Shown here in pieces: positions 5,734 through 9,775 of a DNA stretch of 9,775 bases. A program made the position numbers and the translations under genes. The stretch covers positions 1 through 9,775 of the forward strand of contig JALSIF010000294.1 in assembly GCA_026981635.1 (NCBI GenBank), given 5' to 3'. The DNA comes from JALSIF01 sp026981635 [NCBI: bacterium] (lineage in GTDB: Bacteria; 4484-113; JALSIF01). A model generated the notes under the pieces. The model did not search any database. It was given only the letters and a program-made list of their open reading frames with translations, and was not told the origin of the DNA. How positions within the stretch are numbered: position 1 is the first letter of the stretch; every line of letters starts with the position of its first letter.

Positions 5734-6477
5734 CTAGCGGTGGGAAGTAAGCCTGAGCTGATAGAGGGAGCCAAAGTGCCACTTTTCCACCAGATGGAGC
5801 CCCTGGGCCGCAGCCAGGTCCAGGTAGTAGCTCAGTGGCTTGGCTCTGGTTGAGGCCCCTCGCCTTACCACCCCTGCCCTGATCAGGGCGTCAAGCAGGG
5901 CACGCTGACCACGGCAGTAGACCGAGAGCCAGAGTTCGCCACCCGGCTTGAGGATACGGGCAAACTCTCCCAGCAGCCGTCCCGGCTCCTTCATTCCCTC
6001 CAGTCCCCACTGGCAGAGGGCAGCATCAAAACAGTCATCGGCGAAGGGGAGGGTCGTGTCGCCCCCCAGCAGAAGGAGGAAGATGCGGTCGGGTTCCTGG
6101 TGGCTGAGTTCCCTGATGCTTACCAGCGATTCCAGGGACTGGCCGGCAATCACCGCAACCTCTGCCCCGGAGTGGCCGATAGCCTCCTTGGCCAACATCC
6201 CGCCATAGAGGGGAAACTCAATCAGCCTGGTGTCGGCAAAGCTCTCGTAGAAGCGGATCGCCTGGGTGCGATAGTAGCTTGGATCGGCCAGCTCTCCCAT
6301 GATGATGCGGGAAAGTACTCCCGGCCCCTTCACTTCGCTTGGCTTTCTTCTCTGGGCCTTCTCCTGACTGGCCTGAGCAAGCACCAGCACCTCGGAGTGT
6401 TCGGGGTGTGGGATGAGTTCAAATCCAGGTTGGATTAGTTCGCCTAGTTTCTGGTTTATTATCCTTCCCTCTATCAC
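5734..6477 (-). CDS. Class I SAM-dependent methyltransferase-like protein with degenerate motif I
   Basis: The C-terminal half looks like a UbiE/Methyltransf_11 fold. GDTTLPFADDCFDAALCQWGLEGM (about residues 139-162) matches the post-II region, and LLGEFARILKPGGELWLSVY (168-187) matches motif III. The glycine-rich SAM loop expected upstream (VLDxGxGxG) is replaced by AEVAVIAGQSLESLV, so SAM binding is uncertain. The N-terminal 60 residues are not recognised. I chose the GTG at 6477 (247 aa) because GGAGAAGG lies nine bases upstream. The frame stays open to an ATG at 6594, but that would run through the divergent epimerase start region. It converges on fliY with 18 bases between the stops and diverges from the epimerase with 38 bases between the starts. 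The substrate cannot be told. Confidence 0.65.
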   Translation of the reverse strand: MIEGRIINQKLGELIQPGFELIPHPEHSEVLVLAQASQEKAQRRKPSEVKGPGVLSRIIMGELADPSYYRTQAIRFYESFADTRLIEFPLYGGMLAKEAIGHSGAEVAVIAGQSLESLVSIRELSHQEPDRIFLLLLGGDTTLPFADDCFDAALCQWGLEGMKEPGRLLGEFARILKPGGELWLSVYCRGQRALLDALIRAGVVRRGASTRAKPLSYYLDLAAAQGLHLVEKWHFGSLYQLRLTSHR

Positions 6478-6500
6478 CGGATTTAGCCTTCTCCCCTGGT

Positions 6501-6507
6501 TATAATA
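6501..6507 (+). promoter_or_regulatory. -10 box of epimerase operon; reads as a -10 on both strands
   Basis: TATAAT at 6501-6506 ends nine bases before the epimerase GTG, so the transcript would begin at or within a few bases of the start codon. No good -35 is visible. On the minus strand the same bases read TATTAT (6507-6502), correctly placed to start a transcript near 6495 just ahead of the methyltransferase ribosome binding site. One symmetric box could serve both divergent genes. Confidence 0.5.
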
Positions 6508-6508
6508 C

Positions 6509-6520
6509 CCCACCGGTGGG
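6509..6520. repeat. 12-bp perfect palindrome over the epimerase start
   Basis: CCCACCGGTGGG is its own reverse complement. It lies just downstream of the TATAAT box and its right arm contains the GTG start codon, a typical place for a repressor operator. A very similar inverted repeat is at 8544-8558 in front of the lipoprotein gene. As a hairpin it could only have a tiny loop, so protein binding to DNA is more likely than an RNA role. Confidence 0.55.
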
Positions 6521-6959
6521 CCATAGACGCAGGCTGGACCACATAGCCATCGCGGTCCGCAACCTAGAAAGTTCCCTCTCCCGCTGGACCGCACTGCTTG
6601 GCATTGAACCTTCAGAGGTGGAAATCCACTCCATAGAGTCGGAGGGGGTTAGGGTGGCGATGCTCCCTTTGGCGGATGGGGTAATGGTTGAGCTGATGGA
6701 GCCTTTGAGTGACCAGTCGCCGGTGGCCCGCTTTCTTGAGCGGCGGGGAGAGGGCATCCACCACTTCGCCCTGCGCTCGAAAGATCCGGCAAAGGACCTT
6801 GCCCGCGCCCGGGAGATCGGGCTAGAGGCGGTGGGCGACGGGCCGGTGGAGACTACGGTGGGTGATCTGGTGGCCTTCCTTCACCCCCGCTCCCTGAATG
6901 GTGTACTCTTGGAGTTCAAGCAGCGGCGGGAGGAGAGAAGCCATGGCGGCGGAACCTGA
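6516..6959 (+). CDS. mce: Methylmalonyl-CoA epimerase
   Basis: This enzyme interconverts (2R)- and (2S)-methylmalonyl-CoA in the cytoplasm, linking propionyl-CoA carboxylase or decarboxylase to methylmalonyl-CoA mutase. The 147-aa protein shows the vicinal-oxygen-chelate fold: [12 protein letters not shown] (first metal ligand His9), [21 protein letters not shown] (Glu59 at the second ligand site), [10 protein letters not shown] (the third His, 82-83) and NGVLLEFKQ (Glu133, acting as ligand and base in characterised relatives). [15 protein letters not shown] is almost a signature for this family. There is no Shine-Dalgarno before the GTG start. A TATAAT box lies nine bases upstream, which suggests a leaderless message. 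The 3' end overlaps the carboxyltransferase by 17 bases. Confidence 0.9.
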
Positions 6960-8511
6960 ATTTCGTCCCGGCAAAAAGATTAAGACCACCAAGGACCGCA
7001 TCAAGCAGCTTGAGGAGCTCAGGCGCAAGGCCCAGGCAGGAGGCGGCCCGGAGCGGGTCACCGCCCAGCATGAGAAGGGCAAACTCACCGCCCGGGAGCG
7101 CCTGCATCTGCTTTTGGACGAGAACTCCTTCATGGAGATTGACGCCTTCGTTGCCCATCCCCAGTTCAAGGTGCTTGGCGATGGGGTGATTACCGGCTAC
7201 GGAACCATAGGTGGGCGCAAGGTTTGCGTCTATGCTCAGGATTTCACCGTGATGGGGGGAAGCCTGGGGGAGCGCCACGCCCAGAAGATATGCAAGATCA
7301 TCGACATGGCCATCCGGATGGGCTGTCCGGTGATTGGCCTAAACGACTCGGGTGGGGCGCGCATCCAGGAGGGAGTGGTATCCCTTGCCGGTTATGCGGA
7401 GCTCTTCTTCCGCAACGCCATGGCCAGCGGGGTGGTCCCCCAGATAACTGCCATCATGGGCCCCTGCGCCGGTGGAGCGGTCTACTCTCCCGCCCTGCAG
7501 GACTTTATCTTCATGGTTAAGCACACCTCCTTCATGTTCCTCACTGGCCCCGATGTGATCAAGGAAGTGCTCAACGAGGAGGTTACCTTTGAGGAGCTGG
7601 GTGGAGCACTCACCCACGCCACCAAAAGTGGGGTGGCCCACTTTGTGGCCTCAAACGAGATTGACTGCATAAACGAGATTAAGCGTTTGCTCTCCTACCT
7701 TCCCCAGAACAACCTGGAAGATCCCCCCCGGAGCAAAAGCGATGACCCCATAGACCGCAGGGAGGAGCGGCTGGCCGAGATCGTCCCTGATGACCCCAAC
7801 AAGCCCTACGACATGAAGGAGGTCATAAACCTCATCGTTGACCGCGACTCTTTCTTTGAGGTCCACTCCCTATATGCCCCCAACCTGATTGTGGGCTTTG
7901 CCCGCCTGGGGGGTGATGTGGTGGGCATCGTGGCCAACCAGCCCAAGGAGTTTGCCGGTGTGCTGGACATAAAGAGCAGCGTTAAGGGCGCCCGCTTCAT
8001 CCGCTTCTGCGATGCCTTCAACATTCCCATCATCACCTTTGAGGATGTGCCCGGCTTCCTTCCTGGCACCAGCCAGGAGTGGAACGGCATCATCCGCGAA
8101 GGGGCCAAACTGCTCTACGCCTACTGCGAGGCCACCGTGCCAAAGCTCTGCGTGGTCACCCGCAAGAGCTATGGGGGGGCCTACTGCGTGATGAGTTCCA
8201 AGCACCTGCGAAGTGACCTGAATTTCGCCTGGCCCACGGCGGAGTTTGCCGTCATGGGAGCGGAGGGGGCGATAAACATCATCTATCGCAAAAAGTTAAA
8301 GGAAGCCCGCAACCCGGAGAAGCTGAGAAAGAAGCTCATTGAAGAGTACAAACGGGACTACCTGCATCCCTATCTGGCTGCCAGCCGGGGCTATGTGGAC
8401 GATGTGATTGACCCCCGCGAAACCCGGGAGAGACTCATCTATGGGTTGAGGCTCCTTAGGGGTAAGGTTGACCAGAGACCCAAGCGCAAGCACGGCAACA
8501 TGCCCCTCTAG
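6943..8511 (+). CDS. Propionyl-CoA carboxylase beta / methylmalonyl-CoA decarboxylase alpha-type carboxyltransferase
   Basis: This is the biotin-dependent acyl-CoA carboxyltransferase component that moves CO2 between carboxybiotin and an acyl-CoA, most likely propionyl-CoA. It has 522 aa, the normal family length. The two crotonase-like halves are visible: the N-half with [31 protein letters not shown] and the oxyanion motif [12 protein letters not shown] (173-184), and the C-half with [42 protein letters not shown] and KSYGGAY (408-414). The C-terminus KRKHGNMPL is the classic end. The residue after GGAY is Cys415 where propionyl-specific enzymes have Asp. ATG 6943 is preferred over upstream starts because GGAGGAG at 6929-6935 precedes it. 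The biotin carrier, biotin carboxylase or membrane decarboxylase subunit is not in the window, so carboxylase and decarboxylase roles cannot be separated (candidate names pccB or mmdA). Confidence 0.93.
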
Positions 8512-8512
8512 C

Positions 8513-8541
8513 TTGGGCTGAGGATGGCAAAGTTCTATACT
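8513..8541 (+). promoter_or_regulatory. Putative promoter of the lipoprotein gene
   Basis: TTGGGC at 8513-8518 and TATACT at 8536-8541 are separated by 17 bases. The box ends nine bases before the ATG at 8551, exactly the spacing found for the epimerase. This suggests a separate, leaderless or near-leaderless transcript starting right after the carboxyltransferase stop. The -35 match is only partial. Confidence 0.45.
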
Positions 8542-8543
8542 AG

Positions 8544-8558
8544 GCCCACTATGTGGGC
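8544..8558. repeat. Inverted repeat over the lipoprotein start
   Basis: GCCCAC (8544-8549) and GTGGGC (8553-8558) are perfect inverted arms around TAT. The repeat begins two bases after the TATACT box and includes the ATG at 8551. It shares the CCCAC...GTGGG arms and the position of the palindrome at 6509-6520, so both may be bound by one regulator. Confidence 0.5.
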
Positions 8559-9775
8559 AGGCGCACGCAAGCTATGCGTGCTGGGGTTGCTCTTGCTTGG
8601 GCTTCTAACCCTATTCTCTTGTGGGAGAGCACTAGATTCCCAGAAGAGGAGCCAGGGGATGGAAGCGGAACCATCTCGCACCCTGTCCCTGGCTACCCCC
8701 ATCGTGACCCAGCTTGAGCTTGACCCCAGCCAGGTAAATCGGCTTGGCTTTCAGGTGACCCTGCAGGGGGATGCCAACGGCGACATGTCGGTGGGCTTTG
8801 CCGATGTGAACCTGCTAGTGGAACACTTTGGCGCTCCCCCCGATGACCCCGACCTGCCGGCGGTGGACTTCAACCTGAACGGCCAGTCGGACTTTGGGGA
8901 TGTAAACATCCTGGTGGAGAACTTTGGGGTGGAGCTGACCCGCTTTGAGGTCCGCGACATAAGTAGCCCTCCCAACCCCCTGCTGGAGCTTTCCCCAGAC
9001 CAAGGCAGCCCCATCCCCCAGGGGGTTGAGTTTGGCTCCGTCTTCATCCCCTCGCCCGATCTTGCGGTGAGGGTGGCGGTCTTCGGGCGGCTTTCCGCGG
9101 GCGGCAGCGAACAGCTCATCACCGTAAGCCCGGTCTTCTCCCTAAACGACCCCCTGCTTAGCGCGTGGGACAGCTCAACCGTAGTCTGGCGCACCGATGA
9201 GCTCATTGGCCTCACTGAGCTATCCAGCGGCCGCAGCGGGGTTATCGCTCGCATTGCCGGGGAGACCGGCATCCCCTGGGTGTGGGATGAGACCAGCCAG
9301 CGGCTTATCTTCTACGGTGAGAACGGGGGGCAGGTGGGGGTGTGGGCCACCAGCCTGGACGGCTCGGCCCCAGAGCTCATGAGCGGCAACGCCAGCCTGC
9401 CCGGAACAGGGCCGGTCAACCTGATTCTGGTCAGCCCCACCGGGGATGCCCTCTACCTCAGCCGGGGGGAGATTGACCCGGGAAGCGGGCTCTATCCCCA
9501 GCTCTACCTGCTTGACTTTGCCAGCAAGCAGTATGTCCGGCTGGGCAAAAGCCTCAACGACAGCGGCTTCGGTCTCTTCCCCGGCGACTGGTTCCCCGAC
9601 GGAAGCGGAGTGCTGGCGGGGGTGATAGACCCGGCCGGCATCGGTGGTGCCCAGCTCTACAAGTTCAGCCTGAGCGACCCGGAGGGCTCGCAGTATGGCC
9701 CCCTGGGTCTGGCCACCGGTTTCTTTGCCCAGGCCACCAGCGGGGATTACTACCTGGTGGCGGCGGACTTCCGGC
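8551..9775 (+). CDS. Secreted lipoprotein with two EF-hand/dockerin-like repeats and a TolB-like propeller region (3' partial)
   Basis: The frame is open to the right edge (408 visible residues). The N-terminus MWAGARKLCVLGLLLLGLLTLFSC is a lipoprotein signal peptide ending in a lipobox-like LFSC, so Cys24 would be lipidated. Two calcium-loop repeats follow: DANGDMSVGFAD (residues 74-85) and DFNLNGQSDFGD (106-117), each followed by a helix of the type VNxLVExFG. This resembles a type I dockerin pair. From about residue 240, blocks such as GVWATSLDG, LVSPTGDALYLS, QLYLLDFAS and WFPDGSGVLAGV resemble PD40/TolB-like propeller blades. An in-frame ATG at 8524 would add nine residues but has GAGG directly touching it. 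I prefer 8551 because of the signal peptide shape and the promoter layout. Function is unknown; an extracellular binding or surface-anchored role is inference. Confidence 0.75.
   Translation, partial: MWAGARKLCVLGLLLLGLLTLFSCGRALDSQKRSQGMEAEPSRTLSLATPIVTQLELDPSQVNRLGFQVTLQGDANGDMSVGFADVNLLVEHFGAPPDDPDLPAVDFNLNGQSDFGDVNILVENFGVELTRFEVRDISSPPNPLLELSPDQGSPIPQGVEFGSVFIPSPDLAVRVAVFGRLSAGGSEQLITVSPVFSLNDPLLSAWDSSTVVWRTDELIGLTELSSGRSGVIARIAGETGIPWVWDETSQRLIFYGENGGQVGVWATSLDGSAPELMSGNASLPGTGPVNLILVSPTGDALYLSRGEIDPGSGLYPQLYLLDFASKQYVRLGKSLNDSGFGLFPGDWFPDGSGVLAGVIDPAGIGGAQLYKFSLSDPEGSQYGPLGLATGFFAQATSGDYYLVAADFR

What the first reader, a model, noticed from the sequence alone, without database searches (positions are those of the whole stretch)
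6501..8558. Same promoter-plus-inverted-repeat layout at two unlinked starts
At 6501-6521 the sequence is TATAAT, then CCCAC-CG-GTGGGC; at 8536-8558 it is TATACT, then CCCAC-TAT-GTGGGC. In both, the box ends nine bases before the start codon and the inverted repeat covers the expected transcription start and the start codon. Seeing CCCAC...GTGGG twice, each time immediately after a -10 box, is unlikely by chance in 10 kb. It suggests a common operator, possibly a regulon linking methylmalonyl-CoA metabolism with the lipoprotein gene, or a conserved 5' end of leaderless transcripts.
Basis: partly seen in the sequence, partly recalled or inferred. Interest (0 to 1): 0.6.

Follow-up and report, generated by a model that had tools for sequence, protein, structure and literature searches.

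The report
Two leaderless promoters, coincidental palindrome

Summary
The letters are as reported: TATAAT 6501-6506 with CCCACCGGTGGG 6509-6520, and TATACT 8536-8541 with CCCACTATGTGGG 8545-8557; each box ends nine bases before a start codon. The box placement is general: in a 491 kb sample of this genome 91 of 418 predicted starts have TANNNT 6-10 bases upstream, against 100 of 7,708 internal ATG/GTG codons. This is the signature of leaderless genes known from Actinobacteria and Deinococcus-Thermus. The epimerase start has such a box in 5 of 9 class relatives. The palindrome does not behave like an operator: 13 genome copies against 28 for the reversed control, the other 11 inside predicted genes, near-matches not commoner at starts (14 of 416) than at internal ATG/GTG (557 of 7,708), absent from the epimerase contigs of 9 of 9 class relatives. 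The starts are not unlinked: 2 kb apart, one strand, bracketing one operon. For the operator: the only two box-plus-repeat copies found in the genome are neighbours. No relative closer than class is held, so it is unlikely but not excluded.

The parts
6501..6506 (+). TATAAT, -10 box of the epimerase gene, 9 bases before its start codon
   Evidence: read directly; enrichment of TANNNT 6-10 before starts in the sampled genome; such a box in 5 of 9 class relatives
6509..6520 (.). CCCACCGGTGGG, perfect 12-base palindrome over the expected transcription start and the GTG start codon; most likely chance
6516..6959 (+). methylmalonyl-CoA epimerase-like gene (Glyoxalase_4), GTG start, probably leaderless
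   Evidence: Pfam PF13669 E 4.7e-20; matches in 9 of 9 class relatives
6943..8511 (+). carboxyltransferase gene of the propionyl/methylmalonyl-CoA carboxylase beta type, overlaps the epimerase gene; Shine-Dalgarno-like GGGAGGAG upstream
   Evidence: Pfam Carboxyl_trans E 3.4e-197; beside the epimerase in the fetched loci of 5 of 9 class relatives, families f3 and f4
8536..8541 (+). TATACT, -10 box 9 bases before ATG 8551
   Evidence: read directly
8545..8557 (.). CCCACTATGTGGG (six-base arms GCCCAC/GTGGGC at 8544-8558), inverted repeat over the start; most likely chance
8551..9775 (+). dockerin-like lipoprotein gene (cut by the contig end), start ATG 8551 preferred; 24 residues up to and including the lipobox Cys, within the 17-30 read by eye for its paralogues
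   Evidence: no Pfam family at E 0.001
8524..8526 (+). alternative in-frame ATG with TAGCTT (8509-8514) nine bases upstream; rival start of the same gene
   Evidence: read directly; the ORF listing
6502..6507 (-). TATTAT on the minus strand, overlapping the plus-strand TATAAT; possible shared -10 of the divergent methyltransferase gene
   Evidence: read directly
5734..6477 (-). methyltransferase gene, divergent to the epimerase gene; Shine-Dalgarno-like GGGGAGAAGG at 6487-6496, GTG start
   Evidence: Pfam Methyltransf_11 E 1.1e-9

Best explanation
Both places are ordinary leaderless promoters. RNA polymerase binds a -10 box (TANNNT, often after GGC; no clear -35) that ends 6-10 bases before the start codon, so the transcript begins at or within a few bases of the ATG/GTG and is translated without a Shine-Dalgarno site. 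That the genome has such a class of genes is shown statistically; that these two genes belong to it, and their exact RNA 5' ends, are inferred. The inverted repeat is a by-product: in this genome the two bases before such starts are mostly C and the base after is often G, and GTG itself supplies part of an arm, so short palindromes across the start arise at about the chance rate. Two happened to have the same arms.
For:: TANNNT peaks at 6-10 bases before predicted starts (19, 21, 16, 26, 12 at distances 6-10; about 4-5 per position at 20-45); the peak is also present at distances 7, 8 and 10, where an in-frame stop codon in the box cannot create it; 91 of 418 starts against 100 of 7,708 internal ATG/GTG and 23 of 418 for TANNNT at 26-30; the 91 starts show C at -2 in 63% and -1 in 44%, with G right after the start codon in 41%; inverted repeats with arms of 5 or more across the start, 4 of 91 against 3.15 when left and right halves are swapped between genes (109 of 300 swaps reach it); with the two window genes added, 6 of 93 against 3.65 (46 of 300); at most 2 mismatches to the motif at 14 of 416 starts, 6 of 91 TANNNT starts and 557 of 7,708 internal ATG/GTG; the other 11 exact sites lie inside predicted genes, none at a predicted start; 5 of 9 class relatives have TANNNT 6-9 bases before a candidate epimerase start; none of the 9 has an exact site on that contig; 0 of 10 paralogues of the lipoprotein have the motif in the stretch searched upstream.
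Against: For this exact motif at TANNNT starts, swapped halves give 4 of 8,281, about 0.17 expected over some 358 such genes in the genome (extrapolated by me), and two are seen; in a position-specific model CCCAC recurs at two or more starts in only 0.27% of 1,500 simulated genomes. This is after the fact: some arm sequence recurs in 23% of them. That both copies are neighbours adds to the oddity. With at most 1 mismatch TANNNT starts have 2 of 91, a little above internal ATG/GTG (83 of 7,708; all starts 3 of 416). With arms of 6 or more the set including the window genes has 3 of 93 against 0.93 (17 of 300 swaps). No RNA data. My gene caller missed the likely starts of both window genes (it put them at 6684 and 8659), so its starts are imperfect. 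The mirrored pattern TNNNAT scores 60 of 418 and ANNNTA 35 of 418 at the same distances; the former overlaps TAGAAT/TATAAT itself. In the in-frame against out-of-frame comparison distance 16 is raised too (26 against 7.6). Four of 9 relatives lack the box at the epimerase start.
Confidence: 0.85

Rival explanations
1. The repeat is a true operator. A repressor dimer bound over the transcription start and start codon shuts both leaderless promoters, tying the epimerase-carboxylase operon to the lipoprotein gene next to it.
For: Only two TANNNT+repeat copies were found in the genome and both are here, at neighbouring promoters bracketing one operon; window excess 2 against 0.10; exact recurrence of CCCAC arms is rare in simulation (0.27%).
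Against: 13 sites genome-wide against 28 control; 11 of 13 inside predicted genes; near-matches with at most 2 mismatches not enriched at starts; no exact site on the epimerase contigs of 9 of 9 class relatives and TANNNT+repeat found in none of these 9 genomes; no known DNA-binding regulator family among the 10 window proteins scanned (two had no family, and the role of the FlbD-type protein is open).
Confidence: 0.07
2. The repeat acts in RNA: a hairpin at the 5' end of the transcript hides the start codon.
For: At site 2 an RNA starting right after the box (8542) folds into GCCCAC-UAU-GUGGGC.
Against: With the start expected 7 bases after the box, the left arm is mostly not transcribed; the folds from 6513 and 8548 do not contain the hairpin, and at site 1 even the RNA from 6507 does not form it. 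Energies are not unusual (z -0.61, 0.05, -1.63, -1.11).
Confidence: 0.02
3. Only site 1 is a real promoter; the lipoprotein starts at ATG 8524 (or is read from the carboxylase transcript) and TATACT is coding sequence. (Not exclusive of the main reading: the palindrome would be chance here too.)
For: ATG 8524 is in frame, with TAGCTT nine bases before it; it lies 12 bases after the carboxylase stop.
Against: From 8551 the signal peptide has 24 residues to the lipobox Cys, within the 17-30 I read for its 10 paralogues, against 33 from 8524 (one paralogue has a longer alternative); TATACT is closer to TATAAT than TAGCTT is.
Confidence: 0.2

Closest known systems
Leaderless ('TA-led') genes of bacteria (Zheng et al. 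2011, PMC3160421; abstract and one results section seen)
   Same: TAnnnT signal about 10 bases before the start, in a high-GC genome, at roughly a fifth of genes, mixed with Shine-Dalgarno-led genes.
   Different: An unnamed lineage whose phylum I could not determine; no RNA data.
-10 region adjacent to ORFs in Deinococcus-Thermus (Zhong et al. 2025, PMC12340547; outline and one results section seen)
   Same: TANNNT directly before the ORF alongside a GGAG-type motif at other genes.
   Different: There mostly 6-7 bases before the ORF and most often TACACT; here 6-10 with 9 the commonest and TAGAAT/TATAAT frequent.
Bidirectional promoters of bacteria (PMC12825309, PMC10268837; search listing only)
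   Same: The TATAAT of the epimerase overlaps a TATTAT for the divergent methyltransferase gene.
   Different: Sequence only; no transcript evidence; not part of the finding.

Membership tests
bacterial leaderless genes (-10 box adjacent to the ORF) | TANNNT about 6-10 bases before the start codon | tested here: met
   both boxes end nine bases before the start; peak at these distances in the sampled genome
bacterial leaderless genes (-10 box adjacent to the ORF) | no Shine-Dalgarno site before the start | tested here: met
   the 20 bases before 6516 and before 8551 hold no GGAG/GAGG/AGGA (read); for the rival start 8524 GAGG lies against the ATG
bacterial leaderless genes (-10 box adjacent to the ORF) | box position kept in orthologues | tested here: inconclusive
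   epimerase: 5 of 9 class relatives, all 4 of family f2, 1 of 3 of f4, 0 of 2 of f3 (up to 4 candidate starts per gene were tried, G006 has only 46 bases upstream; 1 of 10 loci from other phyla also has it). Lipoprotein: no orthologue in the relatives, only weak dockerin-like matches
bacterial leaderless genes (-10 box adjacent to the ORF) | mRNA 5' end at the start codon | not testable with these tools
   no RNA data
   absent at the epimerase in 9 of 9 class relatives, but the list marks none as closer than class

The most novel reading that the evidence does not exclude
CCCAC-N2-3-GTGGG is a genuine, very local operator laid over the start codons of two neighbouring leaderless transcription units. 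One repressor would close both promoters and no others: a two-site regulon joining methylmalonyl/propionyl-CoA metabolism to a neighbouring surface lipoprotein.
Probability: 0.06. Interest if true: 0.35.

Novelty: new member of a known kind. Interest (0 to 1): 0.14.

Why it matters
It points to leaderless genes, about a fifth by this signal, in a further, little-sampled lineage (10 genomes held in its phylum) and perhaps in some of its relatives, which matters for calling gene starts there. The palindrome itself is best treated as ordinary.

Tried and rejected
Rejected: shared operator; RNA hairpin over the start; standard sigma-70 promoter with both hexamers (0 found in 6300-8700 at 9 of 12 matches). 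A stop-codon artefact in the box count was considered: TAA/TAG in frame could raise distances 6 and 9, but 7, 8 and 10 are raised too.

Led nowhere: naming the organism. The search for 16S rRNA in the genome found none, and the genome-contig scan with the epimerase kept 80 loci from records of many phyla, best identity 50%. Lipoprotein orthologues in relatives: only weak dockerin-like matches. First gene calling mixed in contigs that read N and was replaced. The first look at epimerase upstream regions had minus-strand loci unturned and was replaced. In one search the motif check returned an empty stretch for G006 (contig end); its absence there rests.

Full report
What is there. The window is contig C294 of an unnamed bacterial genome (1,745,230 bases, 317 contigs, 85% complete). 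It holds flagellar genes (FlgD, FlgE, FlbD, FliM, FliN-type), a divergent methyltransferase gene, a methylmalonyl-CoA epimerase-like gene (6516-6959), a carboxyltransferase gene of the propionyl/methylmalonyl-CoA carboxylase type (6943-8511) and the start of a dockerin-like lipoprotein gene (the names epimerase, propionyl-CoA carboxylase and dockerin-like are mine, from the Pfam families, the pairing of the first two genes and the look of the repeats, not from an assay). The boxes and repeats are at the stated places, each box ending nine bases before a start codon. The two starts lie 2,035 bases apart on one strand at either end of one operon, so they are not unlinked.

The box. I called genes with a simple codon-usage method in 65 sequences (490,927 bases, 63.3% GC). 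Of 423 predicted genes with a closed start, 418 have 60 bases upstream. TANNNT ending 6-10 bases before the start occurs at 91 of 418, against 23 of 418 at 26-30 bases and 100 of 7,708 internal in-frame ATG/GTG; so 22% raw, some 16% above the upstream background. Other controls at 6-10 bases: reverse complement ANNNTA 35 of 418; mirrored TNNNAT 60 of 418, which is not clean because TAGAAT and TATAAT fit it. Around the predicted starts, in-frame ATG/GTG exceed scaled out-of-frame ones at distances 6-10 (25, 35, 22, 29, 22 against 6.1, 12.2, 13.7, 9.2, 13.7), but also at 16 (26 against 7.6). The 91 starts, aligned on the box, show GGC before TANAAT-like boxes, no -35 consensus by eye, C at -2 (63%) and -1 (44%), and 54 ATG, 35 GTG and 2 TTG starts. 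The signal is strongest in front of divergent genes: 43 of 132, against 23 of 153 (same direction, gap over 40), 23 of 119 (gap up to 40) and 2 of 14 at contig edges. A Shine-Dalgarno peak coexists. This is the pattern described as TA-led or leaderless genes in high-GC bacteria (PMC3160421, abstract and section 'Diverse distribution') and as the -10 motif adjacent to ORFs in Deinococcus (PMC12340547, outline and first results section). In stretches of five class relatives the same peak is weak: TANNNT hits at 6-10 number 12 for 75 starts (G003), 10 for 62 (G007), 9 for 60 (G004), 6 for 57 (G005) and 2 for 48 (G009), against backgrounds of 6.0, 2.5, 5.2, 2.9 and 3.7; G009 shows none.

Conservation at the epimerase start. 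All 9 other genomes held from this class, the same 9 that are held from the phylum, encode the epimerase (each examined 10 genomes including this one). Five have TANNNT 6-9 bases before a candidate start codon of that gene: G001 TACAAT, G005 TATAAT, G007 TAGAAT, G008 TATAAT, G009 TAGATT. G002, G003, G004 and G006 do not; G006 has only 46 bases upstream. Of 10 loci from other phyla looked at in the same call, 1 (L022) has such a box. None of the nine class relatives has an exact CCCAC-N2-3-GTGGG on the contig of its epimerase gene. So the box is present in part of the class while the repeat is not. The relatives are distant (37-43% identity at the protein), so a fast-changing operator could be missed.

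The repeat. The genome search finds 13 exact sites; the control pattern read backwards finds 28. Short contigs read N when fetched and may not have been searched. The class relatives hold 0-7 sites each, with controls of 0-7. All 13 lie in sequence I hold; 11 lie inside predicted genes and none of those at a predicted start. With at most two mismatches, matches centred on starts number 14 of 416 (3.4%), on TANNNT starts 6 of 91 (6.6%), on internal ATG/GTG 557 of 7,708 (7.2%); with at most one, 3 of 416, 2 of 91 and 83 of 7,708 (the two window genes left out). Inverted repeats with arms of at least five across TANNNT starts: 4 of 91 against 3.15 on swapped halves; with the two window genes 6 of 93 against 3.65; at other starts 10 of 325 against 8.42. 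A position-specific model expects 8.1 per 358 genes with loops of 2-3, that is about 2.1 per 91; 2 of 91 were seen. Inverted repeats are therefore not in clear excess at leaderless-type starts.

What speaks for the operator. For exactly this motif, 4 of 8,281 swapped pairs give about 0.17 expected in some 358 TANNNT genes (358 is my extrapolation from 463 genes in 490,927 bases and 91 of 418), and two are found. In simulation CCCAC recurs in 0.27% of 1,500 genomes, any arm sequence in 23%. The two copies are the only TANNNT+repeat sites found in the genome and are neighbours. I read this as an after-the-fact coincidence, with about 6-7% left for the operator.

How it works, most likely. RNA polymerase opens the DNA at the -10 box; with usual spacing (established knowledge) transcription starts about seven bases after it, at 6513-6516 and 8548-8551, giving mRNA with a leader of at most a few bases, read by the ribosome from its 5' end. 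Shown: box statistics and partial conservation. Inferred: the 5' ends, the translation mode, and the choice of ATG 8551 over 8524 for the lipoprotein, which rests on signal-peptide length compared with its paralogues. Seven of those 10 paralogues have a GGAGG/GAGG-type site before the likely start by eye, and 0 of 10 carry the motif in the stretch searched. RNA folding gives no reason to expect a start-codon hairpin from these 5' ends.

Limits. The gene caller is home-made and placed the starts of both window genes too far downstream, so leaderless starts may be under-counted. The sample was partly chosen for motif sites and paralogues. No genome closer than class is held, and the organism could not be named.

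Noticed in passing
window 6478-6515: The divergent methyltransferase and epimerase genes are 38 bases apart and -10-like boxes overlap (TATAAT on plus, TATTAT on minus): a possible bidirectional promoter with one leaderless and one Shine-Dalgarno-led arm.
   Followed up: partly
L129 around 345-366 (G000:C4): Two divergent genes with a 21-base gap share one palindromic box (TAGACT on one strand, TAGTCT on the other), which lies 9 and 7 bases before their GTG starts: apparently back-to-back leaderless genes from one -10 element. Of 60 divergent pairs with gaps up to 300 bases, 18 have TANNNT 6-10 before the plus-strand gene and 8 of those have a reverse box overlapping or within 4 bases (no chance control).
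   Followed up: partly
G000 C20, C83, C99, C124, C138, C142, C235, C290, C301: The genome has 10 further matches to the window's lipoprotein, in nine contigs, in proteins that look like lipoproteins with the same dockerin-like region.
   Followed up: partly
L022 (G027, another phylum): An epimerase gene outside the phylum also starts six bases after TAGAAT, so the leaderless layout for this gene may occur elsewhere.
   Followed up: no
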